DNA from: Lineus longissimus
Lineage: Eukaryota; Nemertea; Pilidiophora; Heteronemertea; Lineidae
DNA: 64,000 nt
Assembly (NCBI RefSeq): GCF_910592395.1
Contig: NC_088311.1
Location: 20,462,501 to 20,526,500, forward strand
Direction of reading: 5' to 3'
A program made the position numbers and the translations under genes. Within the stretch, counting starts at the first letter, position 1, and each line of letters opens with the position of its first letter. The notes under the pieces were generated by a model that searched no databases, was not told the origin of the DNA, and saw nothing but the letters and a program-made list of their open reading frames with translations. Positions 40,303 through 59,229 of the stretch are shown one piece after another.

Positions 40303-40545
40303 CTGAAAATAGATTGACATGAGAGCTTACCTCATTTAAATAGAATATCAAGTAACCAAAACACACAGAGTAACAGTTTTCAAGTCTTTGAATATTCTTA
40401 CAAGTCTCATGTATCATCAATGAATGAAACGGCCAGGGGCCATTGTGCTCACCGTAGAAAGCAATCTAGTACTGTTAATTATGTGCGATATGTGAATAGG
40501 TGATAGGTACCCTGGTAGGCGTACTCATACATATATATGGAATGG

Positions 40546-41331
40546 CTAGTAATAGGACAGGGTGGTATATATTAGTTTATGATCAGACCAATAATTGTCA
40601 ATGACATCGACAAGTTCAATATCATGTGATAAAGCAGTGTTGGTGAAGACTAGGTCTAACGTTGAGTCAAAATCTGTGGTGTTTTTTGTCATGTGCTGTG
40701 TGAAATCAAATCCTTGCAACATATAGGTTTCTAATTTAGCATTGTAGTTTTCAGTATTAGCTATTGACTTCATGTTGAAATCGCCCATGATGAGGTACCT
40801 TTCAGTTGGTTCATATGTTGAGAGGCACTCTTGTAGTCTATAGACCAGGTTTTGAAATGTGCAAGTTGGTGCTGTGTAGATTGCAATGACATGAATGACT
40901 GTGTTGGAGTCTTTTGGATGGATGCAAAGAGATATAGATTCGAAGTTACTGGTGGTAATAAATCGTTTCTCCATTATTCTTATATCATTTTTCACATAAA
41001 TCATTAGACCATGAGGTGGTCTTTGCACAGGGTTGGCAGTATTTTGGTCATTGCGCACAAGCTGGAAATCAGTGATAGAATAGTTCTTGTCGGTATCAGA
41101 TCGTTTTAAACGTGTTTCTGCTAATGCAACAATAGATGCAGCGGTTATGTTTGGATCCGGTTTTAAATCACTAAAGTGTGCGTAGACAGATCTAGCATTG
41201 TGGTAGACAATTTTCAGTAGATTTGATGGCTGGTAAGACAGGGCAGTTTGTATTATTTGATGATTTGACCAACTCTGGTCAGCTATGTGCAGTGAGTGGA
41301 TGTACTGGGTATTCAATTGATTGGTGAACAC
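40546..41331 (-). CDS. Stand-alone endonuclease (EEP fold) of the Helentron
   Basis: A 261-codon ORF with an endonuclease/exonuclease/phosphatase domain of the APE-like type. It shows the opening KIVYHNARSVYAHF, catalytic Glu in ALAETRLK (E72), HGLMIYVKNDI, LIMGDFNM (D184, N186), DSTLDLVFTN and the closing WSDHKLI (S249, D250, H251), so all expected active-site boxes are present. It begins 5 nt after the stop of the large Helentron ORF, in a different frame. It is clearly homologous to the damaged endonuclease domain fused to that ORF's C-terminus. It would nick DNA, as in Helentron elements that carry such a domain. How it is translated is unclear: frameshift, reinitiation or a separate mRNA. 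It could also be the remainder of another nested copy. Confidence 0.85.
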   Translation of the reverse strand: MFTNQLNTQYIHSLHIADQSWSNHQIIQTALSYQPSNLLKIVYHNARSVYAHFSDLKPDPNITAASIVALAETRLKRSDTDKNYSITDFQLVRNDQNTANPVQRPPHGLMIYVKNDIRIMEKRFITTSNFESISLCIHPKDSNTVIHVIAIYTAPTCTFQNLVYRLQECLSTYEPTERYLIMGDFNMKSIANTENYNAKLETYMLQGFDFTQHMTKNTTDFDSTLDLVFTNTALSHDIELVDVIDNYWSDHKLIYTTLSYY

Positions 41332-41336
41332 TAAAT

Positions 41337-44300
41337 CTAATTCTGCATGTGGACACTAATGTAAACTTTTTTCTTTTTTTTCGTGCTTGTTTCTTCATTT
41401 GATTGATAGGCGGTGAACATACCATTATCTGATTGTGTAAACAGATGTTCATCCCTTTTGGAATGTTTTGGCAGACCTTTTGTGGTTGGTTCTCCAATAT
41501 ATTGTTCAAATTGATATCTCTGCATCATGATGGTTTCCAAGTCGTTCTGGTACATGTTGACCATTATCTTGTTTGCTTTCGCTGAATCTGGATCATTAGC
41601 TAGTACTGGCTTGTCAATGTTATTGAAATTTCCAATGATGAAGAATCTCTCTAATTGTTGGTAGGGCAAAAGGCAAGTATGGAAATTATTGATTAGTTTT
41701 GACCAAGTGGAATTTGGATACACGTTTATGAAAAGGACATAGTATTGTTTACACGAGATAGATTGCGGAGGCTGTAAGTGCAGGAGGATTGTTTCAAAAG
41801 TGTCTGTTCGATCGGTTGTTGTTTCCAAGACAGTAATGTCTTTTTTTATGTATAGCATCAGTCCATGCATTGGTCTCATGATATTGTCTGTCGGTTGGTG
41901 ATCATTACGTACAAGTCTGAAATTTGGTAAGGCATATGTTTCAGTGTGATCAGATTGTTTCAACCGAGAATTTGCAAGTGCAATGACGGACGCTGTTGTG
42001 ATGGTTTGATTTTTTTTAATCTCATCAAAATGATCATACACTGATGTAGCATCATTGAAGACAATGGCAAGTTCTTTTCCCTGGTAGACAGGTGTGTAGC
42101 ACAAGGAGAGTTTGTTTTTCTGCTTCATTAATCTCATGTACTTGATCACTTTGGCTGATTGCGAAATGGCACTTTCATTGAGGTCAAGGATGTACAGATC
42201 ATCGATGGATCGGACTCGACTTAAAGCAACATAATGTGAATGTTTCATTAAATTTGTTGGTGTTGTTTGCAGTACTTGGTTAGTGTTCATGTTAACCACA
42301 AGCTTTTTGAATGTGCCCCCTTGTGCAGAGTGGACAGTTCTTGCATTGCTGGGTTTCAAGGGAAATTGACTTCTCATAATGGTATGATGTTTTCCCCATA
42401 AGAACTGACGTTTGACAGCAAATATAGGTGTCCATGATTTGTCGATGTGGTCTGAGTAAAGGGAGCGATTGGTTGCTCTTCTTTGTTGTCCAATCTTTGT
42501 TTCTTCGAATTGAACCCATATAATGGACGGATTTTTAACAATGTCTTTAAATTCAATATATTTTACAATGCAGGATGAGCCATTTACTATGCCGTCTTCT
42601 ATATCGGAGTTAATTGTTGTTGAATATGTGAGGGAAACAGCAATGTTGAGTGTCCTTTGGAGGTTTGCAGAGGCTTTGTACGTGTCTATTGTTTTTAGGC
42701 TGTCATATATCTTTTGTTTTTGTTTTTCCGAAACATTTGTTATGAGAACATCATGAGCATCAATTGTTACTTTTGTCATAGTTGCTTTATCGAAAAGTTT
42801 GTTGTTATGAGCATCGACTAATCTATTAAGCAAGAATATGTGAGGTACATCTTCAGGATAATTTGGATCATTTTGGGTAATCATACGACTTTTTAATTGA
42901 GTCAAGTCATCTTGGGTTTGTTTTCCTGTTCTTAATCTATTTAGGATGTTGGCGAATGTCATGTCACCTTGTTGCCTCATTATTTGATCAAGTTCGTACA
43001 CAAAGAAGTATTCTTGCCAAAAATTACCTGCCAAGTAGGCATTCGTTGCATTTGAATCTTCAAACACATAACTGTCAAAACATGGTTGCAGTTGATACAT
43101 ATCACCAATGGCAAGGACATGTATTCCTCCAAATAGGTTCTTGTTGTCTAAAATGTCCGTTAGTCTCTGGTGAATGAAGGAGAACATACCACAGCCAACC
43201 ATAGATATCTCGTCGATGATAAGGACTTTTAAGTGCCTATATTTAGCTCGTAGTGTATTTCGTTTTTCTTGTACCAGGGGTATGTAGTCAGCTTTGAAAT
43301 TCTTTTTGAATGGTATACTAAATGCTGAGTGTATTGTAGAGCCTTCGACAACATATGCTGCATATCCACTGGGGGCTATTATTTGTATTCGTAGATCCTC
43401 TGGATTCTGACCTTCTTCGGAACATAAGTGTCTTAGCATGAATTGATATAGGGCTTTAACAACTTGCGATTTGCCAACTCCTGCCCCGCCTGTTAGGAAA
43501 GTACACAGTTGATCATCACTGGTCTTCAATCTTTGTACGATATGTGTGAAGAACTCTCTTTGTTTATGGTTCAAAGTTCGAAGCAAATCTTTGTACTGAT
43601 CATCTGGCAATCTTTTACCAATCAATTCAACTTCTTGACCAGGTGGACGAACAGAAATACCAATGTCTTGGCCAATGTCATAAGTCTTCTGATTATTTGC
43701 ACGCTCAGGGTCAAAGAATAAGCATTCGCTACTTTGGATAGTGTGATCAATTTCATCTTGCTCAATGATATCGCCTTCTTCTGCTTGGGCAATAGCCTCT
43801 TGTAACTCGTCAATGTTCTGTTCATACTGTCTTCGTTTGGCTTCAATAGGTGTAGTTGTTTTCAGGTAGTTGTAATGCTGTTCATAGGTTTCAAAATCCC
43901 CCAGCAAGTTTTTTTCAGATGTCATCCAAGGGTGAAACAGTAATATTCTCTCCCTATAATAAGCTTCAGAATCGTTGTCTTTATTGAATTTGACATATCT
44001 GATGACCTTAGGTTTATTTCTCTTCGTTATCTTCATGCCACTCTTTGTGACGTAGGATTTTTCTACGTTAAAATCATGGTCCTCATCTATGTTGTGAACA
44101 TGTTTTGAAGTCATTTGGTCATCAAGCTCACTGGAATCATCAGAAGGGTAATCATCTACATTGTCTTGAAAGAGATCATCATCATGTTCAGTTTTTGGAT
44201 ATGTAATGGTGAAGCATGCCACATAATCAGCAAGGCAATATTTTCGAAGACAAAATGGTCTTTTAGCATAGAGGCCGATGTTTCCAAGAGTCTGTACATC

Positions 44301-47300
44301 AGTTGATTGTGGTGACAATTTCTCTAATTTGTCTCGGTCTTTTAATATAAATGGCCGTTCCTCAGGGGTATTGGTATTTATGAAGACCACATCTCGTGAA
44401 CAGCGCGTCATTGGCATTTGTAGTACAAGATATGCTGCCTCTTGTGCTCCCGTTTCAACAGAATTGAGAAATTTGTTTCCCATGTGGCGAACAGCTTGTC
44501 GGAGTTCCATCTTGTCTGCCTTTGCTTCTTTGGATGCGGTGTCAAGAAGAGCACTCATTCCTTTCTGGGATTTGCAGGTGTATGCAATGATGTAGACTGC
44601 CACAGCATATCCATCAAGAATGAATTGAATGTCATGGTTAGCTTGCCAGGCACCAAGTAAGTGCTTCATGTATGGATTAATACGGATTTCTGAAGGTTCT
44701 CTTTTTAGGAATACTTTTGGACATTTTAGGGATGACCGAATGCTTTTGATGTACTCATCTTCTGACATGTCTAACTGTGCAAGAAATTCATCAAACGTGA
44801 GGACGACATCTTTTCCGTCACCCATTTCATTCAAAGTCTCATTAATTCTGGTGAAATTTGCCTTGTATTTTTTCAGAAGTTCTTCATCGATATCTGGATC
44901 AAGTTGTTCCAGAATTCTTGTCCTTCTCATTGGTGGCATTGGATATCCAAATCTGCACACTGGATGCTTACCTTTTCTGCATGTCTTTGAATGTTTGTGA
45001 TATTGCAATGCAAGGAATGGTTTATCAGATTCACTGACATTTGCTGATACGCTAATTACAGAATCAATGTAGTTCACAACTTCTTCTTCAGAGGCTGAGC
45101 CATACTTTGGTGCACCTTCTATCCATAGAGCAATATGTACATGTGGACTACCTCTATTCTGAAATTCCACCCTATAAAAGCTATCATTAATTTCACCGCC
45201 CAGTGGGTAATGTGGTCCTTTCAAAACAATTTTCATGAATTGCTGAAATCTATGATCGAAATATCTAGCACAGGTTACAGGATCAGCACTAAGCAGTCGG
45301 CTTCTTGTTTGCCAGTTAAACTGCTCTATTTGTTCATCAGTATATTCTACTTTGTCAATCAACAAGCCGAGTGTCTTAAGGAGTGGTGACCATCTTGTAT
45401 CAGCAGCTGACAAAGACATGAACAGAGTTGGTATTCCGAGTTGTCGTATCATAGCAAAAACTTCTTTTTTCTTGTTTTCGAGGTAGGGTGGGGAATTCCG
45501 TATGGTTCTGAATATATAATAGCCCTCATCCAAGCGAACAATATTATCTCGAACATTGCTGTTTAACACATCTTCGGCTGTGTAAGCTTTTCCTTTGCTT
45601 TTGCAACGCCGTACAGCTAACTTCACTTTATCAGATATTTGTTTGATTTGTATTTTCTTCAATTTAAAGAAAAGATTAGGAATATTCTGGGAAACTCGGC
45701 GATCTACGGATCTCAATTCATATTTGCTGATATCACTATAGTGCACTGGTATGTCATTTTCAGATCTACCATTTCCACAAAATATTGTTGGGAATGAAAG
45801 GTATTCTGCATTACTATCTTGAAATATGCTTAGTGGTCTTTGGCCTTCTCCAGGGGCAAATATGAATTCCTGAGGTTCAGCAACTTCCGGAGCATCGAGC
45901 ATTGTGTCCATGTTGCCAGATGTTTTTTCTGTTTCGTCGACTTCACTGAAATGATCGCTATCATCATCGGTGTCATTATCATTAGTTTTATCCTCTGTAT
46001 TTGAGGCAATGTGAATGTCAAAATGAGGTGTACTATTTTGACGGTTTCTTTTCAGTTGGGACGTGCTTGGCACAGGTGAAGAAGCTGTTGGGTCAGCACT
46101 AAAAAATATATCTTTGCCGTTTTCCGTGATCATCTCAAAATTGACAATACCATCTTCATCCTGTTTCAATAACTGTGAAGTGCTTGGGCGAGGCTCTGAT
46201 CCTGCTGTGTCAACAAATTCTGACATGGCTCCAGAGTGTTGCTGGTGTAAAGATTCCTTCCAAGTGTTGTGGTCATTGATAGTGATATCTTTGTAAAGAG
46301 GACCATTGTCTTTTAACCACTTCAGAGCGTTAAGTACTTTAGTAGGTCTGATATTTTCAATAAATTCATTGGTTTTGTATTGCATTCGCCTTTTGAGTTT
46401 TACTGGCACGGTTTCCATATCGGATAAATTTCTAGGTAGAGACCTAACTGTTTTTGACACATCTACTGGGACATTGACCACATTGCCTCTCACCATCTTC
46501 TGACCACCAACTGGAAGTTCTCTCATTTGCATGAACGGAATGCGTAATGATATAAGTCTTTCTTCCAACTGGTACAATTCCAGTTCTTGTGGTTTGTCTT
46601 TTACTTTGAAGCCAACATTGTTTGCAATTGACAATTTTGGGATTTTCCCTTTACTGACGGAATCTCGGCAAGTTCGGCAGATCCATTCTTTGTTGTCAAC
46701 AGATATATATTCAGTCTTACATTGTGCCAACAAATCTTGTTGTGCCGTTGATACACTAGCTCTTTTGATATCAATGACAGAATCTTTAAACCACGTTTGA
46801 TGACAACACGTGCAAACATAAAGGGGACCAATTTTAATTTTTTGATGAAATTTGTCTATGCATTTGTCAAGGTTGGAACCATACTCATTTTTTTGTCGTA
46901 ATGTTTTTTCTACAGACTGGTAATTGGCGTTTGCTCTAGATATCTTTTTCTGCATTCTATTGGATAGCATTTCTTGGTGCCTATATTCTCGATCACTTGA
47001 CCGCTTAAATCGTTTTCTTTCTCTTTCAATTTCTTGGAATTCCTCAGCACATCTGTATTTCTTTTTTCTCGATAAATCATTATTTTGTTCAATGGAATAT
47101 ATTCTTGGATCGCTACGACTTTTTTGTTTGTTTCTTCGTTCTTTGACTTTTACTTCATGATTTTGCCGAACATGTTGCTTACTTTTTAATTCTTTGATTT
47201 TATAATCTGGATCAGTGCGCAGTTTCCGTTTGCTTGGTGTTCCTCTTTTATTTTCCCTAATTTTATAGTCTGGATCAGCACGAACCCGCTGCTTATTTTT

Positions 47301-48986
47301 GACCTCCTTGGCTTTATAATCTGGATCAGCACGATCTCGTCGCTTACTTTTGACCTCCTTGGCTTTATAGTTTGGATCAGCTCGCAGTTTCTGTTTGCTT
47401 GATGTTCCTCTTTCATTTTCCCTAATTCGATAGTCTGGGTCGGCACGATCTCGTCGCTTACTTTTGACCTCTTTGGCTTTATAATCTGGATCAGCACGAA
47501 CTTGTTGCTTACTTTTGACCTCCTTGGCTTTATAATCTGGATCAGCACGAACCAGTTGCTTACTTTTGACTTCCTTGGCTTTATAATCTGGATTAGTACG
47601 TTTCTGACGTATGTAGGCCCTCATTTTCGCTTTCTTCCTTTCATGTTTTTCGTTCTGATCCATGAAATATGTCGCAAGATGATCTAACAGTGGTTTCTGA
47701 CAATTTGATGATAATCTTTCTTTGGTTGAAGTGGCACTATGCGAAGCATTTATGGAGGGAGTCGTGCTGTCATTCGGATAGACTATTGTCTCAGACATGC
47801 ATTCATTTTCTGAAATTGCTGTATGTGCAGGTGTCTTCAAAATATTTGGTTGGGTTATTTTCTTATCATCAGAATGGTTAATTTTTTCATCTTTTTTTCT
47901 AATCTTTTTTGGAACAGTGGTTGATGAAGGTTCAGTGATATTTCTGGTGCGTACCGGTAAGCTTAAATGGAGTGGATCATGTTGTCTATTCAGTGCTAAT
48001 CGAAAGGCTTTTGGTGTGAGGATACTAACTTTGAAGAAAGTCACTTCAAAAATAAGTTGATGCAAATCATTGGCGTATTTGTTTATATAACACTGAAGTT
48101 GAGAGTCATCACCAAAGCTTAACAATACTGATGTTCCATCAGGAACTTGGTTACCATGCTTGTCTCTGCTATGAGAGTCAAAGAGATAATAAGCATTTTC
48201 ATGAAACATCACTGCAAATGCATCGTATCCAATAATCAAGATTGCTCCAGTGCAAGTTGTGATGTGATCAACAGCAGTTTGAAGGGACAAGTTTGGCAAT
48301 TCCACTGTTGTTTCATGTAAAATCACATTTACTGTCGAGCCAAGCCGTTTCAATTTGAAATGTTCATTGAAACATTTGATTAATGGAGGCAATTCGTCAA
48401 CTGCAAGGTAACTAATACTGTTGAAACTCCTATACAACATGTCGCCATTCATCAAGATGTCATTCAAATCATTTGATGCCCAATGCAAAGGTGAAATGAC
48501 AAGTGAATACATCAGTGCGGTCACTGCATTTGCAACACATTGCTTACCAACTGAGTCGGTAGAGAAGAAGTGGTGATCTCCTTGGTGGAAATGGCCTTGG
48601 ACAACTCGACTTATTTGTGGATTATCCATTGGTCCAGGATTACTTTCTACATCACCACTTAATTTCAATTTATCGAAGTTATATGAACGACATAAAAGTA
48701 GATGTTCCAGCAGGCAGCATGAAAAATAGTATTCACAAGTGCTTTGTAATGAGGAGTAATGGGCAGCCGCTCTTACATTTTCTACCTGGTCATTGTTTTT
48801 CTTGGTAATTTCGTCAAACCTAATGTTGTAGCTATACAGTTCAGACAGACTGTAGCCTTTCGAGTTATCTCTGTGTGGTATGAAGATTTTGGTGCATCCA
48901 CACTGACCAATGTCCTTATGTTTGCTGGATGTTGCTCTACTATAGAAACAGCCCACAGCTGAACGGTATTGTTCAACAGATATCAT
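41337..48986 (-). CDS. Helentron RepHel polyprotein with 2A, protease and EEP domains
   Basis: An uninterrupted 2,549-residue ORF. In order: a 118-residue leader ending in a 2A motif (residues 102-119). A C76-like cysteine protease follows at about 140-310 (QC at 149-150, DSH at 270-272). Next is a basic region of repeats built on RADPDYKAKEVKSK (about 456-620). A cysteine-rich DUF6570-like zinc region lies at about 720-840. The HUH replication initiator has RGSPHVHIALW at about 1280 and a paired-tyrosine box YIIAYTCKSQKG near 1463. The PIF1/SF1 helicase has GGAGVGKS at about 1836, LIIDEISM at about 1925, AIGDMYQLQP, HSAQGGTF and HYVALSRVRS at about 2255. A C-terminal EEP domain (about 2295-2490) lacks key residues. 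Rep nicks and joins single strands and the helicase unwinds, for rolling-circle transposition. An in-frame TAG lies just upstream of the ATG. The ORF sits in the last DBT intron, same strand. Confidence 0.93.
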   Translation of the reverse strand: MISVEQYRSAVGCFYSRATSSKHKDIGQCGCTKIFIPHRDNSKGYSLSELYSYNIRFDEITKKNNDQVENVRAAAHYSSLQSTCEYYFSCCLLEHLLLCRSYNFDKLKLSGDVESNPGPMDNPQISRVVQGHFHQGDHHFFSTDSVGKQCVANAVTALMYSLVISPLHWASNDLNDILMNGDMLYRSFNSISYLAVDELPPLIKCFNEHFKLKRLGSTVNVILHETTVELPNLSLQTAVDHITTCTGAILIIGYDAFAVMFHENAYYLFDSHSRDKHGNQVPDGTSVLLSFGDDSQLQCYINKYANDLHQLIFEVTFFKVSILTPKAFRLALNRQHDPLHLSLPVRTRNITEPSSTTVPKKIRKKDEKINHSDDKKITQPNILKTPAHTAISENECMSETIVYPNDSTTPSINASHSATSTKERLSSNCQKPLLDHLATYFMDQNEKHERKKAKMRAYIRQKRTNPDYKAKEVKSKQLVRADPDYKAKEVKSKQQVRADPDYKAKEVKSKRRDRADPDYRIRENERGTSSKQKLRADPNYKAKEVKSKRRDRADPDYKAKEVKNKQRVRADPDYKIRENKRGTPSKRKLRTDPDYKIKELKSKQHVRQNHEVKVKERRNKQKSRSDPRIYSIEQNNDLSRKKKYRCAEEFQEIERERKRFKRSSDREYRHQEMLSNRMQKKISRANANYQSVEKTLRQKNEYGSNLDKCIDKFHQKIKIGPLYVCTCCHQTWFKDSVIDIKRASVSTAQQDLLAQCKTEYISVDNKEWICRTCRDSVSKGKIPKLSIANNVGFKVKDKPQELELYQLEERLISLRIPFMQMRELPVGGQKMVRGNVVNVPVDVSKTVRSLPRNLSDMETVPVKLKRRMQYKTNEFIENIRPTKVLNALKWLKDNGPLYKDITINDHNTWKESLHQQHSGAMSEFVDTAGSEPRPSTSQLLKQDEDGIVNFEMITENGKDIFFSADPTASSPVPSTSQLKRNRQNSTPHFDIHIASNTEDKTNDNDTDDDSDHFSEVDETEKTSGNMDTMLDAPEVAEPQEFIFAPGEGQRPLSIFQDSNAEYLSFPTIFCGNGRSENDIPVHYSDISKYELRSVDRRVSQNIPNLFFKLKKIQIKQISDKVKLAVRRCKSKGKAYTAEDVLNSNVRDNIVRLDEGYYIFRTIRNSPPYLENKKKEVFAMIRQLGIPTLFMSLSAADTRWSPLLKTLGLLIDKVEYTDEQIEQFNWQTRSRLLSADPVTCARYFDHRFQQFMKIVLKGPHYPLGGEINDSFYRVEFQNRGSPHVHIALWIEGAPKYGSASEEEVVNYIDSVISVSANVSESDKPFLALQYHKHSKTCRKGKHPVCRFGYPMPPMRRTRILEQLDPDIDEELLKKYKANFTRINETLNEMGDGKDVVLTFDEFLAQLDMSEDEYIKSIRSSLKCPKVFLKREPSEIRINPYMKHLLGAWQANHDIQFILDGYAVAVYIIAYTCKSQKGMSALLDTASKEAKADKMELRQAVRHMGNKFLNSVETGAQEAAYLVLQMPMTRCSRDVVFINTNTPEERPFILKDRDKLEKLSPQSTDVQTLGNIGLYAKRPFCLRKYCLADYVACFTITYPKTEHDDDLFQDNVDDYPSDDSSELDDQMTSKHVHNIDEDHDFNVEKSYVTKSGMKITKRNKPKVIRYVKFNKDNDSEAYYRERILLFHPWMTSEKNLLGDFETYEQHYNYLKTTTPIEAKRRQYEQNIDELQEAIAQAEEGDIIEQDEIDHTIQSSECLFFDPERANNQKTYDIGQDIGISVRPPGQEVELIGKRLPDDQYKDLLRTLNHKQREFFTHIVQRLKTSDDQLCTFLTGGAGVGKSQVVKALYQFMLRHLCSEEGQNPEDLRIQIIAPSGYAAYVVEGSTIHSAFSIPFKKNFKADYIPLVQEKRNTLRAKYRHLKVLIIDEISMVGCGMFSFIHQRLTDILDNKNLFGGIHVLAIGDMYQLQPCFDSYVFEDSNATNAYLAGNFWQEYFFVYELDQIMRQQGDMTFANILNRLRTGKQTQDDLTQLKSRMITQNDPNYPEDVPHIFLLNRLVDAHNNKLFDKATMTKVTIDAHDVLITNVSEKQKQKIYDSLKTIDTYKASANLQRTLNIAVSLTYSTTINSDIEDGIVNGSSCIVKYIEFKDIVKNPSIIWVQFEETKIGQQRRATNRSLYSDHIDKSWTPIFAVKRQFLWGKHHTIMRSQFPLKPSNARTVHSAQGGTFKKLVVNMNTNQVLQTTPTNLMKHSHYVALSRVRSIDDLYILDLNESAISQSAKVIKYMRLMKQKNKLSLCYTPVYQGKELAIVFNDATSVYDHFDEIKKNQTITTASVIALANSRLKQSDHTETYALPNFRLVRNDHQPTDNIMRPMHGLMLYIKKDITVLETTTDRTDTFETILLHLQPPQSISCKQYYVLFINVYPNSTWSKLINNFHTCLLPYQQLERFFIIGNFNNIDKPVLANDPDSAKANKIMVNMYQNDLETIMMQRYQFEQYIGEPTTKGLPKHSKRDEHLFTQSDNGMFTAYQSNEETSTKKKKKVYISVHMQN
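47186..47630 (-). repeat. Coding tandem repeat in the Helentron ORF
   Basis: About eight copies of a roughly 57-bp unit encode RADPDYKAKEVKSKQ.. or a variant RENERGTSSKQKLRADPNY... The reading frame is kept throughout. Similar basic 'DP.Y..KE..KK' repeats are common in the N-terminal part of Helitron Rep proteins. They may bind nucleic acid or be a nuclear-targeting region. Confidence 0.85.
48630..48683 (-). promoter_or_regulatory. 2A-type ribosome-skipping motif in the Helentron ORF
   Basis: Residues 102-119 read YNFDKLKLSGDVESNPGP. The D-V-E-x-N-P-G-P core is the complete 2A consensus, and the upstream NFD and LKL positions also fit the best-studied aphthovirus-type 2A. Skipping would occur between G118 and P119 and release a 118-residue leader from the protease-Rep-helicase part. 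The codons are visible directly at these coordinates; the function is inferred from the motif. Confidence 0.85.
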
Positions 48987-48999
48987 GCTTACTTTTATC

Positions 49000-49860
49000 T
49001 ATTCCACGGATTAAATTACACAATACGATTGACACAACTTACTACAAGCGCGACACGCTTTTTTTCCCTAAATAATTCGATAGTGCAATATTTCAAGAAG
49101 TTGATTCAGTTCATATGTACTTGTCTTTCAGAAGTATTGTACTTCACACTCTTGATCGGTCTATCCCCAATAGTCATAATCAGCGACAATAATGTCGTAC
49201 CCTTTCTGTGGCCAATATGATCGTCACAATCTTAGGTTCAATATCAACAGGAGTAACACGTTGTTGCAGGTAGAAGTAGGAAATATATTATCAGTACGGG
49301 TAGTAAATATATTGAAGAACTGAACAATCAGAGGGTTACACTCGACCTTCCGATGAATTTTATTGAGTCTTGACCGGTTGTCCAAATTGTCACAATTAGC
49401 TGTGCACTTTTGGTGATGAACAATATTACAGGAACAGTTCCTTTGTAGCTATGTCTCTGTCTATCTATAGATAGGAACCAAAGTCTACTATAATATACAA
49501 GTAAGAGTTTATTTATGAAGAAAAAATATACTTATATTATAACAAAGACATAGTACAGAATGACGGTGGATACAGTAAAATAGTCGGAACGATGATGAAG
49601 AGTAGCTGGTCCTACAAGATGCACCTATAAAATGGAGTCGATGGGAAATGAGTATCAACCTTTTTCCTTCAGGCTTTAATGGACTGTTCTGCTGGTCAAT
49701 CTTGAGAAGTATCTTTTTCTTCTTCACATAACTTTGATAGCGCTTCACTTGGTTTTGCTTCGTAGGTCTGGTTTGCTTGCTTTCTTTGTTTCTGATTATA
49801 TAGTTTGCTTTGCTGGTTGTTTGTTTGCTTATGCTTATGTTCTTCGTTTGCTTATGCTTA
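49000..49860. other. No gene seen; DBT intron or Helentron 5' flank
   Basis: Contains a short palindrome, CTATCTATAGATAG, at about 49457-49470 and otherwise unstructured AT-rich DNA. It probably includes the Helentron promoter, but no motif could be supported. Confidence 0.35.
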
Positions 49861-49917
49861 TATAACAGGCGTGCAGCCTGCTGTGCTGCTATGGGTTCTC
49901 GTGAGAGAGCCTGGACT

Positions 49918-50340
49918 GTGCAACCTGTGGAAAGTTGCACGCTGTCTCAAGCAGGGCAGACAACTTCAGAAAGCGCCAGCAGCGTTACGCAAAATTTTCC
50001 AAATGAGAATTCTCGAGATGAAAATTCATCAATGGAAAATTATGCCAGAGTTACCCGGCAGGCACAGGTGCACGCTGACACCTGCGATTAAGTTCAAGTA
50101 CACGCTGACACTTGAACTTTGTTCTCACCAATGTGAGAGGGCCTTGGTTAGAGGCAAACGCAAGTGTGATGAACACTTGCACAGTTACCAATGCCAGAGT
50201 TACCCGGCAGGCACAGGTGCACGCTGACACCTGCGATTAAGTTCAAGTGTACGCTGACACTTGAACTATGTTCTCACCAATGTGAGAGGGCCTTGGTGAG
50301 AGGCAATAAACACCAATGCCAGAGTTATATGGCAGGCACA
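49918..50340. repeat. Run of about a dozen perfect short hairpins
   Basis: Successive inverted repeats with 6-11 bp perfect stems lie a few bases apart. GTGCAAC/GTTGCAC is at 49918-49940, GAGAATTCTC at 50005-50014, GATGAA/TTCATC at 50017-50030, CAGGTG/CACCTG at 50065-50084 and AGTTCAAGT/ACTTGAACT at 50091-50118. Next come TCTCAC/GTGAGA at 50123-50138 and GCAAGTGT/ACACTTGC at 50160-50180. The middle group recurs about 149 bp later with CAGGTG/CACCTG at 50214-50233, an 11-bp stem at 50240-50267 and TCTCAC/GTGAGA at 50272-50287. In the second copy AGTTCAAGTGT pairs perfectly with ACACTTGAACT, so the stem was kept or lengthened. A third partial unit starts at about 50317. No gene. Confidence 0.85.
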
Positions 50341-51390
50341 GCCAATATCACTCGGAGGGCAGGCGTACAAAGGACACTTGGTCAATTGTCAGCAGTGGAA
50401 GGTCGTCGTGGCTAGTGCAAGCCAAATCTGCGTTAGCTGAAACAAGAAGGAGAAACAGGTTAAATTAGAAAGTTTTGGGAAAGAACAAAAGGTTTATCAA
50501 ATTACCTGCAACGTGAAAGCAGGCGAATAGCAATGCATGCCCTTGCTCCATGGACACCAGAGTCCAAAGGCCTGACGTCCACTAAAGTGGTTTTGAAAAG
50601 CAAAGATAGTAGCCATGTGGCGGCCATGTTTGATTTTGAATAGGGTCTGGAACTAGTAGAGAATCTCCCTTTCACTACATGTAGGTCATGACCCACATAC
50701 GTTTCAGGTCTGTCAAAAAGAAAACAAGTTGGTGGCCTGGTGGACATCTGGGACTTTGGTTTGGGCCTAAAATCAATAGGGAATTTCCTCTACCATAGGA
50801 GATCACACCACAAAACTTTCAGTTCAGCCATGGGTTGAACTACCATCGCGAAGTGTCCACCAATTCCTAATAGATACATTGATAAAATAATGCCTTGAAA
50901 GTATGCGTACTTGGTGATCCAATTATGTCAGTGTACTTACATTATCAAAACCTCCAACAACCCCACCACCACTTTGGTGTCAATAGCACACAACCTTGCT
51001 TAAGTGTGTCAATCTTGAAAAGAGACAGAGAAAAAGTTTTCTAAAACAGTTGTCATGTACAACATACGTCATCTTCTGTGCACCATGCGACTGGTTTTGC
51101 CATGGCGGGGCACAAAATTATTATGTCATGTACATCATACATATACACAGACGATGTCGTACTAATCAATGTAATATTCAGTTATCACTGTGTGTATACT
51201 GTATATCGTCATGGCGTTGATTCCCAATAAAGGTGGCGATATCACAGACAATATTCCGACAACATCGTCATATTACACCAGGTGATGTAAGACTTACCGC
51301 AGTAGCCCTAAATAAGCTTGATCTGCATCAGCAATACACTCAATGACTCATAGAAATAGCAACAACCTAAAAAAGTAAATGAAATACATG

Positions 51391-51486
51391 TGTTCCGCGC
51401 ATTTTACCGATCTGCGCTATCTTAAGATTGCGCTGCGCATTCTTAGGATCCTATAATTGCGCGGCAATCTCGAGATCGCGCAAGGG
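51391..51486 (+). repeat. Left TIR of the Ginger-like element
   Basis: TGTTCCGCGC through CTCGAGATCGCGCAAGGG is the inverted counterpart of 54350-54450. It is built of nested GCGC-flanked palindromes (CTATCTTAAGAT; ATTGCGCTGCGCATT). Confidence 0.88.
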
Positions 51487-51930
51487 AGTTGGGGTGTTGT
51501 GTGTGTTGCATGAGCCAATGTGAGATGTTGGCCTGCAAATAATATAACTGAGTTTATGTTCTCTCCGAGAATTTGCAACATCAAACTGCATAAATTATGA
51601 TGAAATATATGAAATATGGGTAGCCATTCCAACAATAATCTTCTGCACGGATCATGGGCTTGAATTCTGAAAAGTAACATCAACTTCTGCAATGTTTTAT
51701 TGTATAAGGGACAGAATGCGTATAAAATGAAGAAGTGCAGAAGTTTACGTATGAAGGAGGCAAAGACCCTTCATGGGCCAAGATGCCGCTATGACGGTAA
51801 ACGGTAAACGGTAAAGAATGAAAGAAAATGAGGACGGGAAACTTGGTGTGAAAGAAAATGGTGTCCCCTACGTATTACTAGTAGTAGAATTCGTTCTACC
51901 ATATTGTTCAGTGATTTATTGTTGGATTTG

Positions 51931-52208
51931 AGATGATGGTCAGTAAATATTGGTCAAAGTGTCATAGTGAGATCTGTTCACATTATCAAAGGCATGGCCG
52001 CCTTAATTAGCACTGCTAATTAGGCTTCTGAGATGATGGTCAGTAAATATTGGTCAAAGTGTCATAGTGAGATCTGTTCACATTATCAAAGGCATGGCCG
52101 CCTTAATTAGCACTGCTAATTAGGCTTCTGAGATGATGGTCAGAAAATATTGGTCAAAGTGTCATAGTGAGATCTGTTCACATTATCAAAGGCATGGCCG
52201 CCTTAATT
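51931..52208 (+). repeat. 100-bp coding segment in three tandem copies
   Basis: Units start at 51931, 52031 and 52131 (exact period 100). Each reads MMVSKYWSKCHSEICSHYQR onward, then in the first two copies a TAATTAGcactgCTAATTA hairpin with a stop. Only the third copy runs on into the long ORF. A non-multiple-of-3 triplication within coding sequence has cut the ORF from the integrase that would normally precede it. Confidence 0.9.
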
Positions 52209-53344
52209 ACCAGAGGAGGAAAAGAATTCGGGTCGCAGAATTTGAAGTCGGTGATCACGTAACCATTGAAGTCCCGAAGCTAGACAGAGCCAGCAGCAAT
52301 CCACGCCGCCTACCCGCCATCATAACGAAGATTACGGGAGATCACGATAAGCAGTACCACCTCTGCACGGAGTATGGCAATATCGGGTCTTATCGTGGAG
52401 GTGACCTAATGCCATACTCATCCACGATTGTGCCGAAGTTCGACGCCACCGTGTCCCTGAGATCAGCCGCCAGATCAGCATACCCGAAAAAGATGTCCAA
52501 AGCCAAATGCAACTGTAGAGGAAAGTGCGATACGCAACGATGCGCCTGTTTTCGGGAGAACGAAGAGTGTACTAGTCACTGCCACCCAAGCCGATCCTGC
52601 AAGAGACCCAAACCAAGTCGACATCAACAACGTGATGCCAACCTCAACCCGATGCTGTACGTTGGCGACAACAACTGGCTGACGGACCGACATATGGAAG
52701 AATCAAATCGTCTAATCAAGAAGATCGAACCAGCACTGTCGGGCCTCGAATCAACAGTTCGGCAACTCCACGGGCATGTTAAAACCAAGAAACCGTCCGG
52801 GAAATTCGTCCAATTTATACATGCTGGAAACGACCATTGGGTTACGGCTTCAAACGCAATCGGCAATAAAGACAACGTTGTTACCGTATACGACTCTCTA
52901 CACCGGGGCGAGATATCGACCGAAGTGCAACAATCCGTGGCAAAATTTGTTAAATCAGAGAACGAGAAATTGTCATTCGAACTCGCGAACGTGCAGCAAC
53001 AAAGTAACTTCTCCGACTGTGGCCCATTTGCCGTCGCCTACGCAGTATCGATCGCCTACGGGGAGGATCCCGTATCGCTGACATACGATGATGTACGAAA
53101 AGATCTATCCGACGGAATCAAGAGAGGCTTCTTTAATCGTTTCGTGTCAGAATGCCTATTTCGAACCGCCACTCTGCGAACCTACGACGCGCCGATTCAT
53201 TGCAAGTGTCGCGGTATTGACGATGGATCAAAGATGATCGAATGTGAAAGATGCCTAACGTGGTGTCATTACGACTGTTACCGTCTGACTAAGAAATCGA
53301 AAATCGAAAACTGGAAGTGTGTCGTGTGTAAAGGAGTGTGGTGA
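52133..53344 (+). CDS. Integrase-tail protein: chromo-like, Cys-rich, Ulp1-like protease, PHD
   Basis: 403 codons, open throughout. Residues 34-95 (FEVGDHVTIEVPKLDRASSN to SYRGGDLMP) match the small barrel that follows the integrase core in Ginger/KRBA2-like proteins. Residues 126-156 form a dense cysteine cluster (CNCRGKCDTQRCACF...CTSHC). Residues 175-345 look like a C48/Ulp1 cysteine protease with H235 (DHWVTAS), D254 (VYDSL), Q290 and C296 (QQSNFSDCGPFAVAY). Residues 357-399 make a PHD-type finger (CKCRG...CERCLTWCHYDCY...WKCVVC). The DDE integrase core is missing upstream. Ulp1-like proteases and PHD fingers have been reported in some Ginger families (from memory). The ATG used here lies in a tandem duplication, so the true start is unknown. 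Confidence 0.82.
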   Translation: MMVRKYWSKCHSEICSHYQRHGRLNYQRRKRIRVAEFEVGDHVTIEVPKLDRASSNPRRLPAIITKITGDHDKQYHLCTEYGNIGSYRGGDLMPYSSTIVPKFDATVSLRSAARSAYPKKMSKAKCNCRGKCDTQRCACFRENEECTSHCHPSRSCKRPKPSRHQQRDANLNPMLYVGDNNWLTDRHMEESNRLIKKIEPALSGLESTVRQLHGHVKTKKPSGKFVQFIHAGNDHWVTASNAIGNKDNVVTVYDSLHRGEISTEVQQSVAKFVKSENEKLSFELANVQQQSNFSDCGPFAVAYAVSIAYGEDPVSLTYDDVRKDLSDGIKRGFFNRFVSECLFRTATLRTYDAPIHCKCRGIDDGSKMIECERCLTWCHYDCYRLTKKSKIENWKCVVCKGVW

Positions 53345-54349
53345 AAGACAGACTATTAGTACGAGCTATGAACTATAAACTATAAACTATTAATTATGAA
53401 GTGATCCTGGTCTTTATTCATCGTCATTATCAACATCATTCTGTGTGAAATAACTTCAACCGATGCGCTTGAAAATTTTATGTTTTTCATTTTATCAAAG
53501 GCGGACGGTTTACAGGCTGTATTGGAAAGGGGCCATCCATTTAGCAGGCTTCATACGCATAAAAGTCTGGATTTCCGGACACCCCCCTCAAATGGTAAAA
53601 ATGTAGGGCTTACATTGACGCCCCTCCCCCCCTCAGATGCATATCATAAAATGGATGACCCCTTGCTTAAGAAGGGAATGGGATCAACATTAATGGAGAT
53701 GACCAAATTGGACCAAGAAGGGAGACTACAGGCAGGACTATAATCAAATGTATTTGATCAATTAAAAGGGGCGTGGTCACTCTCAGGATGGATATCTGCA
53801 AGCTGTGGCCGGAGTAACCTGGAAAAGAAAATACATGTAGTTGATATTATATTTATAATGAGAAAATAACATAAAGCATAGAGTGTCTTATAAGAAATAG
53901 GGCCTAACCATTTGCATGAGGTCTCCCTTCCCAAGGAAGACCTTGAGGCCAGGGGAGGCCTAGGGCCTAGCCTACATGACAAGACAACAGACATTAAGAG
54001 TGGCAGTAATTGAGGCTTAGAACATGCTATAAAGGCAGTAAAATGCCGAAGTAATTGGAGAAACTATAATAATAACTAGAGTAGCCAAACCAGGAGCATA
54101 AATATCGGTACAAATAGGCCTACAATCATACAAATCACCATAGTCAAAGATTTGAGACGGACCCTGAGCCAGCATTCACATCATATCCGGCATCCCATAG
54201 ACAGTCACATGACAGTAACGTGACAAATCGAAGGTGTAGCAAAAAGTCAGGTTAAAAATAAAGACACCAACGTAAAATGAGTGAAAATCTGTTTCTTACA
54301 AAGCCATAAAAGGATGATCTCTAAAATGCGCAATCGGCAAAAAGCGCAG

Positions 54350-54450
54350 AGACACCCTTGCGCGATCTCGAGATTGCCGCGCAATTAAAGGATCCTAAGA
54401 ATGCGCAGCGCAATCTTAAGATAGCGCTAATCGGCAATTGGCGCAGAACA
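54350..54450 (-). repeat. Right TIR of the Ginger-like element
   Basis: Runs from CCCTTGCGCGATCTCGAG to GCGCAGAACA, followed by the CATG target copy. It differs from the left TIR mainly by a few bases near the outer end. Confidence 0.88.
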
Positions 54451-55660
54451 CATGTACTAGCATATTATTATCGAGCCTATTATTATAAGCCCAACCACAG
54501 CCTGACAGAAAGTGTCAAGAACGTTTGATCGACCTTTCTTAGCTGTAAGAGATAACATCACACCAGCCGGAGGAAGTCACTGCCACGCCATCCACAACAA
54601 ACCTTTTAAGAGGCACAATGAACAAAAGAACAGATGCTAGTTTTCTGCTAGTTTGTTGTGGCCAGCTGAATTTTGCAAACTGGGTTGACTGCAGAATCTG
54701 GTATGGCAGGGACAGTCAGTACATTTTGTGTACAATTGACCCAATGTACTAGTATACAGTGGCCAGCACGACCAGTACATGTTTTGTAAACAAACAATGT
54801 GTAGGCCTATACAATAATGTAGTGTAGACGACATGCATCATTGCATGCATGCTGTGTGTATTGCATGTAGTTGAGCACGAGCATCATGACCAAACTTCCA
54901 AAAACACACCTCAGACCTACTAATACTAGAAAATACAATGAGTGTAGGTCCAATGTACATTTTAATCAAACCTCATGTCCCAAATGTTGCATTTAACTTA
55001 CCAATAATGCACTAATAACACTTTGAAAATCCTGAAATCAAGCACATGTGCAGTCTCTTGCAAGATGAGAAACAGGAAGTGGTCAATGTATGGAGCGCCT
55101 TTACTGAATAAATTATTCTCTGATATTTTTCAAATATGTATTTTTTTCAGTTTCAGTGATGCAGAACCTAAATACAGCAGACCCTACATAGAAATCCTTT
55201 CCTCCTAACTGAATTGAAACAATAGTAGTAGTACAGCATATTTATGTATGGTCTCCAACTATACTTATAGGGCGCCTTTCGTGCACAAATTTAGTGGCAT
55301 CTTTGAAATAATTTTCAATAAAATCCAAGAAGTAATGGTCACATGGTACAAGTTTCCCACCCGATTGTGGTGGGTTAATCATAAGCATAATTTGATGTGC
55401 GGTACTTGCAGCTGCCACTTTGGCCTGTGGGGCCTAAATTTGGAATGATCTATGAGCTGTTCTAATATTTCTGTAAGGTATGACAAATCAGACAACTGCC
55501 TTTTTTCCTATGATCATGTAGGCCTCTCCTTATTCACACATGCATCTGTGATCTGTTCAGAACTGGCCCTGGCCAAGTGGTGAATCCGAGACTTGCGGTA
55601 CCAAGCTTGCATGTACAGTCTAGGTCAAAATAATAGTGAAGAACGTGCCACTTGATGACA
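54451..55660. other. DBT intron; no gene seen
   Basis: Short frames only. TACATGTA-type and TAGGCCTA-type words recur, as elsewhere in the window. No repeat boundaries could be fixed. Confidence 0.4.
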
Positions 55661-55669
55661 ATGGTGAAT

Positions 55670-56975
55670 TTTTAACTTTGACCTCAGTGATCCCTGATTG
55701 ATAGGTCAAATGATAAACCAGGGTGATATGTATACACATCCACCAACAATTTCATCACTCTAGTGACAACAATAGGCTACAAAATGACAAAAAATGATTT
55801 CCAAGATAGCCACCTAATGATATGGCACCAAATAAATAAAAAATCAAGAAAATGTAAGGTACAAGTCAGAAAAGACAAAAGTGAAAAGATAAAAAAAATA
55901 ATAAAATAAAAAAAATATTTTTGGCCGTCCTTGACCGGGGTTTGAACTCACGACCTTTGGATTGCCACAACACGAAAAACACGAAACATGCAATTTCGGC
56001 CATATCTGTGTCTGCGTTGTGACCTCTGTGACCTTGACAAGTAGGTCAAATTAAAAACCCATATGATATATGATGTATCCTTGCTATGAGTACCTACCAC
56101 AAAAGTTTTATCGAAAACAAGTCATCAAGCGAGATATCACACTTTTTAGATATCCACATTCGACCCCCTGGTGGCCAAATTGAGAATCAGATCGGACCGA
56201 TATTCAGCACAAGACGTTATCTGATATAGGGGGTTATATGTACCAAGTTTCAAGTTCATAGCTGTGGCGGTTGAGAAACGTGCCATAGTTACACTGAAAC
56301 AGCCAATTTATGCCATTTGACCTCTGCAACCTTGAAAAGTAGGTCAAATTAAAAACCCGTACGATATATGATGTATCCTTGCTATTAGTACCCACCACGA
56401 AAGTTTTATTGAAAACAAGTTATTGATAAGCGAATTATCACACTTTTTAGGTATCCACATTCGGCCCCCTGGTGGCCAAGTTGAGAATCAGATCAGACCG
56501 AAATTCAGCACCAGAGGTTATCTGGTATAGGGGGTTATATGTACTAAGTTTCAAGTTCATAGCTGTGGAGGTTGAAAAACGTGCCATAGTTACACTGAAA
56601 CAGCCAATTTACGCCATTTGACCTCTGTGACCTTGAAAAGTAGGTCAAATTAAAAACCCGTATGATATATGATGTACCCTTGCTATGAGTACCTACCACA
56701 AAAATTTCATTCCAAACAAGTTATTAATAAGCGAGATATCACACTTTTTAGATATCTACATTCGGCCCCCTGGTGGCCAAATTAAGAATCAGATCGGACC
56801 GAAATTTAGTGTCACAGGTCATCTGACCAAGGGAGTCCTGTGTACAAAGTTACAAGTTCATAGGCTTAGCGGTTAAGAAACGTGCCACTGTTTTTGAAAC
56901 AGGATACGACGACGACGGACGACGACGGACGACGGACACTGCGGTGTTGTATAGACTCCCCTACGGTGAGCCAAA
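55670..56975. repeat. ~300-bp tandem repeat ending in a GACGACGG tract
   Basis: Three similar units start near 56028, 56327 and 56628 at GACCTTGAMAAGTAGGTCAAA. A more diverged unit precedes them from about 55670. Shared landmarks are ATGATATATGATGTATCCTT, CCCCCTGGTGGCCAA, ATCAGATCGGACCG and AACGTGCCATAGTTACACTG. The block ends with a GACGACGGAC microsatellite at about 56906-56937 and then CTCCCCTACGGTGAGCC. At 55930-55960 a reversed tRNA B-box-like GAGTTCAAACCCC occurs. Probably a dispersed non-autonomous element that formed a local tandem. Confidence 0.75.
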
Positions 56976-57172
56976 AACCAACCAAAGCAGTCATGATTAC
57001 CTAACTACAACCGCTACTGCTAGAACGAGGCACAATGCTTCACACATTGTAACTCAGGTGTTTAAGAATGTTAAACAGACCCTTTCCTTGCTTTCTTTTT
57101 CAACCTAAGTCGCAAAAAATTCTATCTCTGTTCATCACACTAATCTAAGTTGGGATTCATGGTCACTCCTAC

Positions 57173-58907
57173 CTGTATTTTCCCTATAGCACCTATTGCA
57201 ACTTCTGGTGGCAATATGATAGGTTTGGCATATGTTCCACCAATCTGAAACCGACAAGGAATGTTTAGAAACTACATCTTAATGGCACTGTCAGTATTAC
57301 TTGTTCTGTGGAGGACATGCACTAGACTCAAAACGGGAAAATTTTACCATAATGTGATGTTTTTCAGACCGGAAATCACCAAATTGAGCTTTTCAAGACC
57401 CGTATTCTACATCTTTGATTTGAGTCCGACACCTTCATTGAAACGTCACTGCGCTGCAAATGTCTACTTACCGAGCCTATATTAGATAATGAGAATGTCC
57501 CTCCTGTTATATCACTCTGCCCTAACTTGCCAGCAGTTCCTAGAGCCTGCAGACGATTTATTTCTGCACCTATTTCCAGTATATTTAGACACTGCATGTT
57601 CTTTACGTTTGGTACCAGTAGGCCATCAGGCGTGTCCATAGCTAAGCCTATGTTATGAGAAGCCTGGAAGGAAATAAATGTACATGTACATGTATCTTAT
57701 ACAAATATAACCAGACAAGTTGGCTGCGGCACTTGGACCCTGCCAGGAAGACAGAAGCTCAGATGGCCAAAGAACACCTGGCACTGCAACGTGACAAAGG
57801 AGTTGGAAAGCCTTGGGATGTCTTGGGATCATACAGTGATGTACCTGCGCCAAGGCAAACAAATGTGCCCACCCAAATCGAAAGTAGCTGCGATGGGCTC
57901 CTGTGCAAAGACAGAGTCATCTGGCCAATGAATACAATTGGTGCCAAACCATAGTGGCACACAGCAAAATGTTCACATCGCAATGAGCAAACGAATAGGA
58001 AAAAAAGCAATCTAAGGGATTACCATACCCTACCTTATAAATCACATTGTCACAATTTTCATCAGTGTGTGCATTTAGTTCTGGAAACTGGTGAAGGGCC
58101 ATAGAAGCAGCCTGAAATACAAACAATGTGGTGCTGTACGAATATGCTATCATCCATTGCTAATATTCAGGTTATTCTGGTCCATCTTATCATTGACTAA
58201 AATGATAGCCATTCAAAAGAAAAAATACATGATCTAATTTTTGTTTTGCTCTTTCATGATATTTTGATATCCTGATATTTTAATGAGTCAGGCTTCAACT
58301 CATACATTTAGGACAACGAAGGATTAACAGGTGTTTATTTACCTTGGACCAAGACTGAACAAGTAATTTCTCTCCATCTTATTCATCTTATTTTTAACCC
58401 ACACAACATTTCAGAGTGCTGAATGTCATTTTTGAAAGAATCAACTAACACACCGATCATAGATATCTGATGATGAAGAATGATTGAATAATCACGTGTG
58501 CTTACCTTCAATATTATTGGCATGTAAGACAAGCGTATACCCCTTTCAGCGGCAATGGTCTTCACATCGCTCCGAAGATGTACAAGAGCGGTCATATCTA
58601 CTTCATCACAGTAACCAAAGTGTGGAATTGTCTGTGCTAATGTCATCGTCTTCACCATAGCCTTTTTGATACCTCTTACTGGAACCATTTTATCCTCGCT
58701 TAAAATAACTGCGGCTGGTCTAGCGACAGGAGCGGTTATAGGTGGAGCAGGAGCTGGGGTAGAAGACGGTCTTGCTGGAGCTGCAATTGAGGGCGTTGTT
58801 GTGGGTGCTGGGGCAACAGCTGTTGGTCCATCAGATATGAACTTGAGGATGTCCTCTTTCAGAATTCGTCCATCCCTTCCTGTATGTGTTATATCGGCCA
58901 AATTGAT
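57173..58907 (-). CDS. DBT: DBT (BCKDH E2) exons: subunit-binding end, linker, catalytic core
   Basis: Four in-phase exons with GT-AG borders. 58506-58907 (134 codons) has [20 protein letters not shown], the second helix of the E3/E1-binding domain. A Pro/Ala/Thr-rich linker of about 50 residues follows, then [20 protein letters not shown] and [18 protein letters not shown], the start of the acyltransferase core. 58034-58111 has [20 protein letters not shown]. 57472-57663 has [20 protein letters not shown] and [15 protein letters not shown]. 57173-57244 has [20 protein letters not shown]. The core accepts acyl groups from branched-chain keto acids and passes them to CoA in the mitochondrial matrix. 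PHFGYCDE and ITGGTF favour DBT over other E2 paralogues. Confidence 0.96.
57664..58033. other. DBT intron with possible LINE-derived scrap
   Basis: A + strand frame ([20 protein letters not shown] and on) reads partly like a degenerate transposon tail. Nothing firm. Confidence 0.25.
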
Positions 58908-59229
58908 CTGAAATGATACAGAGCTCTGCATTTGAGTGGTTACATCACATCGCCCAATGGGGAGAACCGTGGCCCAGTAGAAGAGCGTCCCACTTGTGAC
59001 CGGCCAGAACGTCATGGGTAGGAGACCCGGGCAGTGCCAATCTTAATATACATATACTCTCAACTGGTCTGAAAAGGTCAAATGTGGTGAAGTGTGTGCG
59101 CTCTGAGGTTTCTGCAGAAACCTTTTTTAGATTGGGATGAGGAATAGATATATAGCCCTGCTTTGAGAATGTTGTACATTTTAAGCACTTAATTTAGATT
59201 TATTCGATTTTGATAAAAAACAACTTTAC

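What the first reader, a model, noticed from the sequence alone, without database searches (positions are those of the whole stretch)
48630..48986. A complete 2A ribosome-skipping peptide heads a Helentron polyprotein
Residues 102-119 of the 2,549-residue Helitron ORF read YNFDKLKLSGDVESNPGP. This is the full D-V-E-x-N-P-G-P core plus the upstream positions known to matter for 2A activity. It sits exactly between a 118-residue leader of unknown function and the cysteine-protease domain. 2A-like peptides are known in some non-LTR retrotransposons; in a rolling-circle DNA transposon this would separate a small leader from the replication machinery co-translationally. The leader itself (cysteine-rich, ending in a hydrophobic LLEHLLLC patch) is not recognised. 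In some LINEs the 2A can act as a targeting signal when skipping fails, so dual localisation is an alternative.
Basis: partly seen in the sequence, partly recalled or inferred. Interest (0 to 1): 0.9.

Follow-up and report, generated by a model that had tools for sequence, protein, structure and literature searches.

The report
Ribosome-skipping leader in a rolling-circle transposon
A rolling-circle DNA transposon in this animal genome begins its giant protein with a short leader that ends in a virus-like "skip" signal, so the cell probably makes the leader and the replication machinery as two separate proteins from one message; two LINE retrotransposon families in the same genome start with a related leader and the same signal.

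Summary
ORF 41337-48986(-), 2549 aa, reads YNFDKLKLSGDVESNPGP at residues 102-119, directly before a cysteine-protease domain: a tegument-type deubiquitinase (VTD), not OTU. The element is a 13.5-kb Helentron (window 40423-56977, with a 3-kb nested insertion) with copies over 99.9% identical.

The 2A is more than chance. Its core is intact in 17 of 20 own-genome leader copies, across families with heavy synonymous divergence. Genome-wide there are 92 core matches against 0 for the reversed pattern. The peptide is 14/17 identical to a viral 2A tail in the PDB. Seven of 15 VTD proteins from other sources carry it at the same place; eight do not, and the carriers tested are not one clade.

The leader is a conserved module (YRxx[IV]Gx[FY] at residue 7 or 8), apparently exchanged between Helentron families near the 2A. 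A related leader plus 2A heads two of about seven 2A-bearing LINE families read here.

Most likely StopGo separates a leader protein from the VTD-Rep-helicase-endonuclease product. Skipping itself is untested. No paper found links 2A with Helitrons, but Rao et al. 2025 could not be read.

The parts
40423..56977 (-). Helentron element (5' end at 56977, 3' end at 40423), including a 3058-bp nested insertion
   Evidence: Limits of near-identity with copies on C9 and C13
41337..48986 (-). Polyprotein ORF of the window copy, 2549 aa
   Evidence: 2812 aa in three near-identical copies
48633..48986 (-). Leader, residues 1-118 (the product expected to be released)
   Evidence: Translation; conserved in own-genome families
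48945..48968 (-). Leader signature YRSAVGCF, residues 7-14
   Evidence: YRxx[IV]Gx[FY] also in 6 of 7 outside 2A carriers and in 0 of 8 outside VTD proteins without 2A
48630..48683 (-). 2A / StopGo peptide, residues 102-119
48630..48653 (-). Core octapeptide DVESNPGP; the skipped bond is expected between Gly118 and Pro119
48156..48587 (-). VTD (tegument-type) deubiquitinase domain, residues 134-277
   Evidence: PF04843 E 8.4e-6; 8add by profile
47177..47622 (-). Basic tandem repeats in the protein (DPDYKAKEVKSK type)
   Evidence: translation
46266..46652 (-). DUF6570, residues 779-907
45132..45590 (-). Helitron_like_N (Rep region), residues 1133-1285
42912..43574 (-). PIF1-like helicase, residues 1805-2025
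40546..41331 (-). Endonuclease ORF, out of frame with the polyprotein in the window copy only
   Evidence: Exo_endo_phos_2 E 1.9e-12; in frame within the 2812-aa ORF of L011
56961..56971 (-). 5' subterminal inverted repeat GCTCACCGTAG
40447..40457 (-). 3' subterminal inverted repeat CTACGGTGAGC
40428..40444 (-). Possible 3' hairpin (7 bp, loop of 3)
   Evidence: not significant there (z -1.12, 29 of 200 shuffles fold at least as well)
51392..54449 (.). Nested insertion absent from copies C9 and C13

Best explanation
The element is a recently active Helentron whose single ORF starts with a leader of about 118 residues ending in a StopGo (2A) signal. The ribosome makes the leader up to Gly118, fails to form the Gly118-Pro119 bond, releases the leader, and goes on from Pro119. 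The second product carries VTD deubiquitinase, DUF6570, Rep, helicase and (in intact-length copies) endonuclease. Shown here: the motif, its place, its conservation across Helentron families, its F2A-like context, a conserved leader with a shared N-terminal signature, and near-identical copies. Inferred: that skipping occurs, that the free leader has a job of its own, and that the element was active recently.
For: Core intact in 17 of 20 own-genome leader copies, including all 8 with open frames over 2000 aa. In the core, synonymous differences per site are 0.51-1.23 in 14 of 15 family pairs (0 in L010-L014), non-synonymous 0-0.18 (only about 5 synonymous sites, so rough). 92 genome-wide core matches, reversed control 0. 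Window peptide 14/17 identical to a viral 2A tail in PDB 9rhu_G2. Of the F2A residues that Li 2026 reports as contacts or as sensitive to mutation (F4, L6, L7, K8, L9, D12, E14, N16), the window keeps all but L6, which is K. Seven of 15 outside VTD proteins have the 2A directly before the VTD. The upstream KLKLSG resembles the LLLLSG-like class of that paper.
Against: No translation or expression data. Eight of 15 outside VTD proteins lack the 2A. Several other Helentron families of this genome have N instead of G just before the core (L025, L026, L027, L034, L036, L040, L044, L046, L048, L049, L064), although Li 2026 reports a strong G preference there when the core starts with D, so their activity is doubtful. 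Between the two closest families the leader shows little constraint (pS 0.05, pN 0.04). Nine of the 17 copies with an intact core have short frames, so damage alone does not set the three exceptions apart.
Confidence: 0.8

Rival explanations
1. Incomplete skipping is the point: the unskipped fusion is targeted to the secretory pathway by the hydrophobic leader and the skipped product stays in the cytosol or nucleus, as reported for sea-urchin NLR 2A leaders.
For: Outside carriers P0002, P0003, P0005, P0008 and P0016 have strongly hydrophobic leaders (best 12-residue means 2.6-3.3). The precedent is PMC4981915.
Against: The window leader's best 19-residue mean is 0.76 and its patch LLEHLLLC holds E and H; of 11 own-genome leaders only L027 exceeds 1.1 (1.66). 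SignalP was not available.
Confidence: 0.1
2. The box is kept for another reason (ribosome pausing, or a peptide or domain function of the leader) and a single long protein is made.
For: Skipping was not tested; N before the core in several families may weaken skipping.
Against: D, E, N, P, G and P of the core are the only positions besides M1 invariant in 11 leaders from several families and sources, and the leader-VTD histories conflict around that joint.
Confidence: 0.06
3. The replication product starts by internal initiation at Met120, right after the 2A, and the 2A is incidental.
For: Residue 120 is Met in the window family and in L022 and L023.
Against: Other families have C, V, S or I there, outside carriers R, T, L, C or I.
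Confidence: 0.04

Closest known systems
2A / StopGo sequences of RNA viruses, above all F2A (Li 2026, PMC12846837: abstract, passages, sections 6 and 10 seen)
   Same: Core DVESNPGP, FD-LKL-G upstream context
   Different: Here in a DNA transposon, close to the N terminus, behind a conserved leader; activity not measured
2A of non-LTR retrotransposons (Odon 2013 not held; mentioned in passages of PMC11512398 and PMC4981915)
   Same: 2A in a transposon ORF; two LINE families of this genome have a related leader
   Different: Different transposon class and downstream domains
N-terminal 2A signal sequences of sea-urchin NLR proteins (PMC4981915: passages and part of section 2 seen)
   Same: 2A near the N terminus
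   Different: There the 2A is itself a 26-residue signal sequence; the window leader is 118 residues and only weakly hydrophobic
VTD-bearing Helentrons (Erven-type VTD family, PMC9741609: passages seen)
   Same: VTD within a Rep-helicase-AP endonuclease ORF
   Different: No hit for 2A peptide, NPGP, skipping or self-cleav in its main text

Membership tests
2A / StopGo | Core (D/G/C/N)(V/I)ExNPGP in frame | tested here: met
2A / StopGo | Suitable upstream context | tested here: met
   Window family 14/17 identical to a viral 2A tail; several other families of this genome depart at the position before the core
2A / StopGo | Failure to form the Gly-Pro bond, two products | not testable with these tools
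   Needs a translation assay
Helentron | Rep and PIF1-type helicase in one ORF | tested here: met
   PF14214 and PF05970
Helentron | C-terminal AP-type endonuclease | tested here: met
   In frame in the 2812-aa ORF of L011; out of frame in the window copy
Helentron | Subterminal inverted repeats, no target duplication | tested here: met
   11-bp repeat; no shared flank by eye in 3 insertions; empty sites not examined
Helentron | Short 3' palindrome | tested here: inconclusive
   7-bp hairpin, not better than shuffles; one search listed no inverted repeat of 12 or more
VTD (tegument-type) deubiquitinase | Sequence and fold of the family | tested here: met
   PF04843 in 11 of 11 members of A3; 8add by profile; fold search agrees but the model is poor (mean pLDDT 48.9)
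VTD (tegument-type) deubiquitinase | Catalytic residues | tested here: met
   Q135, D270 and H272 in 11 of 11, C150 in 10 of 11 (Ser in L022); which residues are catalytic is recalled from M48
VTD (tegument-type) deubiquitinase | Ubiquitin cleavage | not testable with these tools
   Needs an enzyme assay
NLR-type 2A signal leader | Hydrophobic signal sequence upstream of the 2A | tested here: inconclusive
   Weak in the window family, strong in several outside carriers

The most novel reading that the evidence does not exclude
Leader plus 2A is a portable cassette used by both LINE retrotransposons and rolling-circle DNA transposons. Elements swap it as a unit at the 2A joint, because the skip frees the leader protein from whatever follows. 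The leader would then be a helper protein useful to unrelated transposons in one genome.
Probability: 0.45. Interest if true: 0.88.

Novelty: new variant of a known kind. Interest (0 to 1): 0.74.

Why it matters
Among transposons, 2A skipping has been described for non-LTR retrotransposons. A conserved 2A in Helentrons would extend it to DNA transposons and give a concrete product map for a class whose protein processing is little known. The related leader in LINEs and Helentrons of one genome raises a directly testable question: what does the leader do that two unrelated ways of replicating can both use?

Tried and rejected
Rejected: OTU as the identity of the protease (Pfam, PDB profile and fold search give the herpes tegument/VTD family). 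Rejected: one clade of 2A carriers on the VTD-to-helicase tree (held-together tree 125.6 log units worse); so losses, repeated gain or transfer. That tree had 16 rows, 9 with 2A: four own-genome copies and P0002, P0003, P0004, P0005, P0016 against seven others. P0008 and P0009 (both 2A carriers, short pieces) and P0007, P0010, P0017, P0019, P0020 were not in it. An earlier quick tree of 18 rows with P0007 and P0017 gave the same two carrier groups.

Led nowhere: scan of viral contigs with the N-terminal part (no relative); models of leader plus VTD (mean pLDDT 48.9) and of the leader (45.7), too poor to interpret beyond the VTD match. The search for VTD copies in the own genome did not complete, so the share of own-genome VTD Helentrons without a 2A is unknown; the own-genome 17 of 20 counts only places that match the leader.

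Papers: Helitron with NPGP 0; Helitron with 2A-like 0; any three of 2A-like, transposon, ribosome skipping, Helitron gave 5, none with Helitron; any three of 2A peptide, rolling-circle, transposable elements, NPGP gave 1, on PIF/Pong/Harbinger elements; one search matched 620 papers, of which only 15 were listed, none with Helitron. Odon 2013 and Rao 2025 are not held; Rao 2025 covers eukaryotic 2As by its title and may already contain such cases.

Full report
Check of the observation. The ORF at 41337-48986 on the minus strand has 2549 residues and reads YNFDKLKLSGDVESNPGP at 102-119. The core pattern occurs once in the window and in 0 of 100 shuffles. Pfam finds Herpes_teg_N at 134-277, DUF6570, Helitron_like_N and PIF1; a separate ORF at 40546-41331 carries the endonuclease.

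The element. The window lies in a 391-Mb genome. Copies on C9 and C13 match from 40423 to 56977 except for a 3058-bp insertion at 51392-54449 that they lack; identity is over 99.9% in the two long blocks. The ends are TTTTTGGCTCACCGTAG... and ...CTACGGTGAGCACAATGGCCCCTGGCCGTTTCATT: an 11-bp subterminal inverted repeat and, by eye, no target duplication in three insertions. A 7-bp hairpin near the 3' end is not better than shuffles (29 of 200). This fits a Helentron. Three copies have an unbroken 2812-aa ORF; the endonuclease was located in it in L011. The window protein equals that of L012 through residue 2530 and loses the frame before the endonuclease.

Conservation in the genome. Twenty places match the leader (the tool calls such counts lower bounds); all twenty were fetched. 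The core is intact in 17 of 20. The other three are L015 (core altered, frame 493 aa), L024 (leader frame disrupted) and L028 (no core, stops). All 8 copies with open frames over 2000 aa have the core; 9 of the 17 have shorter frames. Between families other than L010-L014, leader identity is 30-53%, yet D112, E114, S115, N116, P117, G118 and P119 are invariant in the 6 and 11 sequences aligned. In the core, synonymous differences per site are 0.51-1.23 in 14 of 15 pairs and 0 in L010-L014; non-synonymous 0-0.18, from the V/I swap and the path between the two serine codon boxes. With about 5 synonymous sites this is rough. Over residues 1-101 non-synonymous change is lower than synonymous in all 15 pairs, but barely in L010-L014 (0.04 against 0.05).

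Genome-wide. The degenerate core pattern has 92 matches and the reversed control 0. These have 35 spellings. Twenty spellings were read from one place each and four more places later, two of them new spellings. Downstream of the 2A, Pfam gives PF04843 in L034, L036, L038 and L046. L044, L048, L049 and L064 look like a VTD start by eye only; Pfam found none in the L044, L048 and L049 pieces and L064 was not given to it. L040 was placed by its leader alone. L037, L039, L042 and L043 have endonuclease matches, below the curated cut-off in L037 and L042; L041, L042 and L045 have a PHD finger (below the cut-off in L045); L033 has a sub-threshold Transposase_22 match, followed by endonuclease-like and RT-like frames by eye. 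L052 resembles L037 by eye. By spelling, 39 of 92 fall to Helentrons (2 of these by leader only), 30 to LINEs and 23 were left unclassed; one of the 23 (L063) reads as LINE. Most single places were assigned by spelling, not read.

Other sources. Of 19 further proteins, 15 have a VTD with some sequence ahead of it. Seven have the 2A directly before it (P0002, P0003, P0004, P0005, P0008, P0009, P0016); eight do not (P0006, P0007, P0011-P0015, P0018), of which P0007 and P0018 start close to the VTD and may be cut. P0010 lacks the first part, P0017 shows no VTD, and P0019 and P0020 are not Helitron proteins by their Pfam rows. YRxx[IV]Gx[FY] sits at residue 7 or 8 in 6 of the 7 carriers (P0004 starts 15 residues before the core) and in 0 of the 8 others. 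A tree from VTD onward puts the carriers tested in two groups and rejects one clade.

The 2A itself. The best solved-chain match is the tail of 9rhu_G2, labelled in part Genome polyprotein, with 14 of 17 identities (E 0.0032); its FDLLKL stretch is the one Li 2026 names for F2A. That paper reports contacts or mutation effects for F4, L6, L7, K8, L9, D12, E14 and N16; the window has all but L6, which is K. It also reports a strong preference for G just before a core that begins with D. The window family has G there, but many other Helentron families of this genome have N, so skipping may be weaker in them.

The leader as a module. Within the genome, leader and VTD disagree: L010 and L027 share 33% in the leader and 74% in the VTD; L010 and L018 share 53% and 47%. 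In resampling, L010 is nearer L018 than L027 in 100% of leader draws and 0% of VTD draws; with L025 in place of L027, 99.8% and 0.7%. L018 against L023 shows no conflict. Exchange between families with a break near the 2A is the simplest reading; L025 and L027 are incomplete copies. A LINE (L061; sister copy L035 continues into RT) has MGISVEQYRFSIGNF..., then LSG-DIELNPGP, then an endonuclease in one frame; a second LINE family (L033, L063) has MGISVELWRVRIGRF..., 2A, then an ORF1-like region. Against 2000 shuffles the L061 leader is matched by 7 or fewer for 8 of 9 Helentron leaders, and by 165 for P0002. The L033 leader is matched by 7 or fewer for 6 of 9, and by 109 (P0001, the window), 506 (P0002) and 31 (P0016) for the rest; its best match is L034 (0 of 2000), along most of the leader with LNQETE in common. 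These leaders were picked after seeing the motif, so the counts overstate significance. A score matrix from 11 Helentron leaders gives L033 16.5 against 9.2 for the best other stretch among 68,338 in the window. The other five LINE families read (L037 with L052, L039, L042, L043, L045) lack the signature in the stretch scanned, which for L039 and L042 was only 133 codons upstream; among Helentrons L044, L046 and L048 lack it in the same short stretch. So 2 of about 7 LINE families have it.

Reading. The anatomy fits StopGo release of a leader protein from a Helentron polyprotein. What the leader does is open. Its relatives in LINEs and its apparent exchange near the 2A suggest a module that works apart from the replication product. 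Prior art seen: 2A in non-LTR retrotransposons and NLRs (passages), VTD in Helentrons (passages), Helentron anatomy (passages). No text tying 2A to Helitrons was found in the searches named under Tried and rejected; Rao 2025 is unread.

Noticed in passing
window 51392-54449: Nested 3058-bp element with about 100-bp terminal inverted repeats (105-nt arms, 91%) flanked by ACATGT; it encodes a 403-aa protein with Ulp1-type protease and PHD-finger matches.
   Followed up: partly
window 11356-28059: Satellite-like array, 286-bp unit, about 58 copies.
   Followed up: no
window 56020-56887: Three 301-bp tandem repeats just inside the 5' end of the Helentron.
   Followed up: no
window 58383-59015: ORF with E3-binding and 2-oxoacid dehydrogenase acyltransferase matches, about 1.4 kb beyond the Helentron's 5' end; probably a host gene piece.
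   Followed up: no
P0001 residues about 2370-2549, and window 40546-41331: The end of the window polyprotein resembles the start of the endonuclease ORF by eye, so the 2812-aa ORF may hold two endonuclease-like stretches, the first degenerate.
   Followed up: no
L034, L036, L040, L049, L064: Further 2A Helentron families with leaders of about 84 to 185 aa that start MG(I/V/N)(D/S) with an (Q)YR signature, and N instead of G before the core.
   Followed up: partly
P0006, P0015: Relatives without a 2A that carry an OTU domain as well as the VTD (Pfam rows).
   Followed up: no
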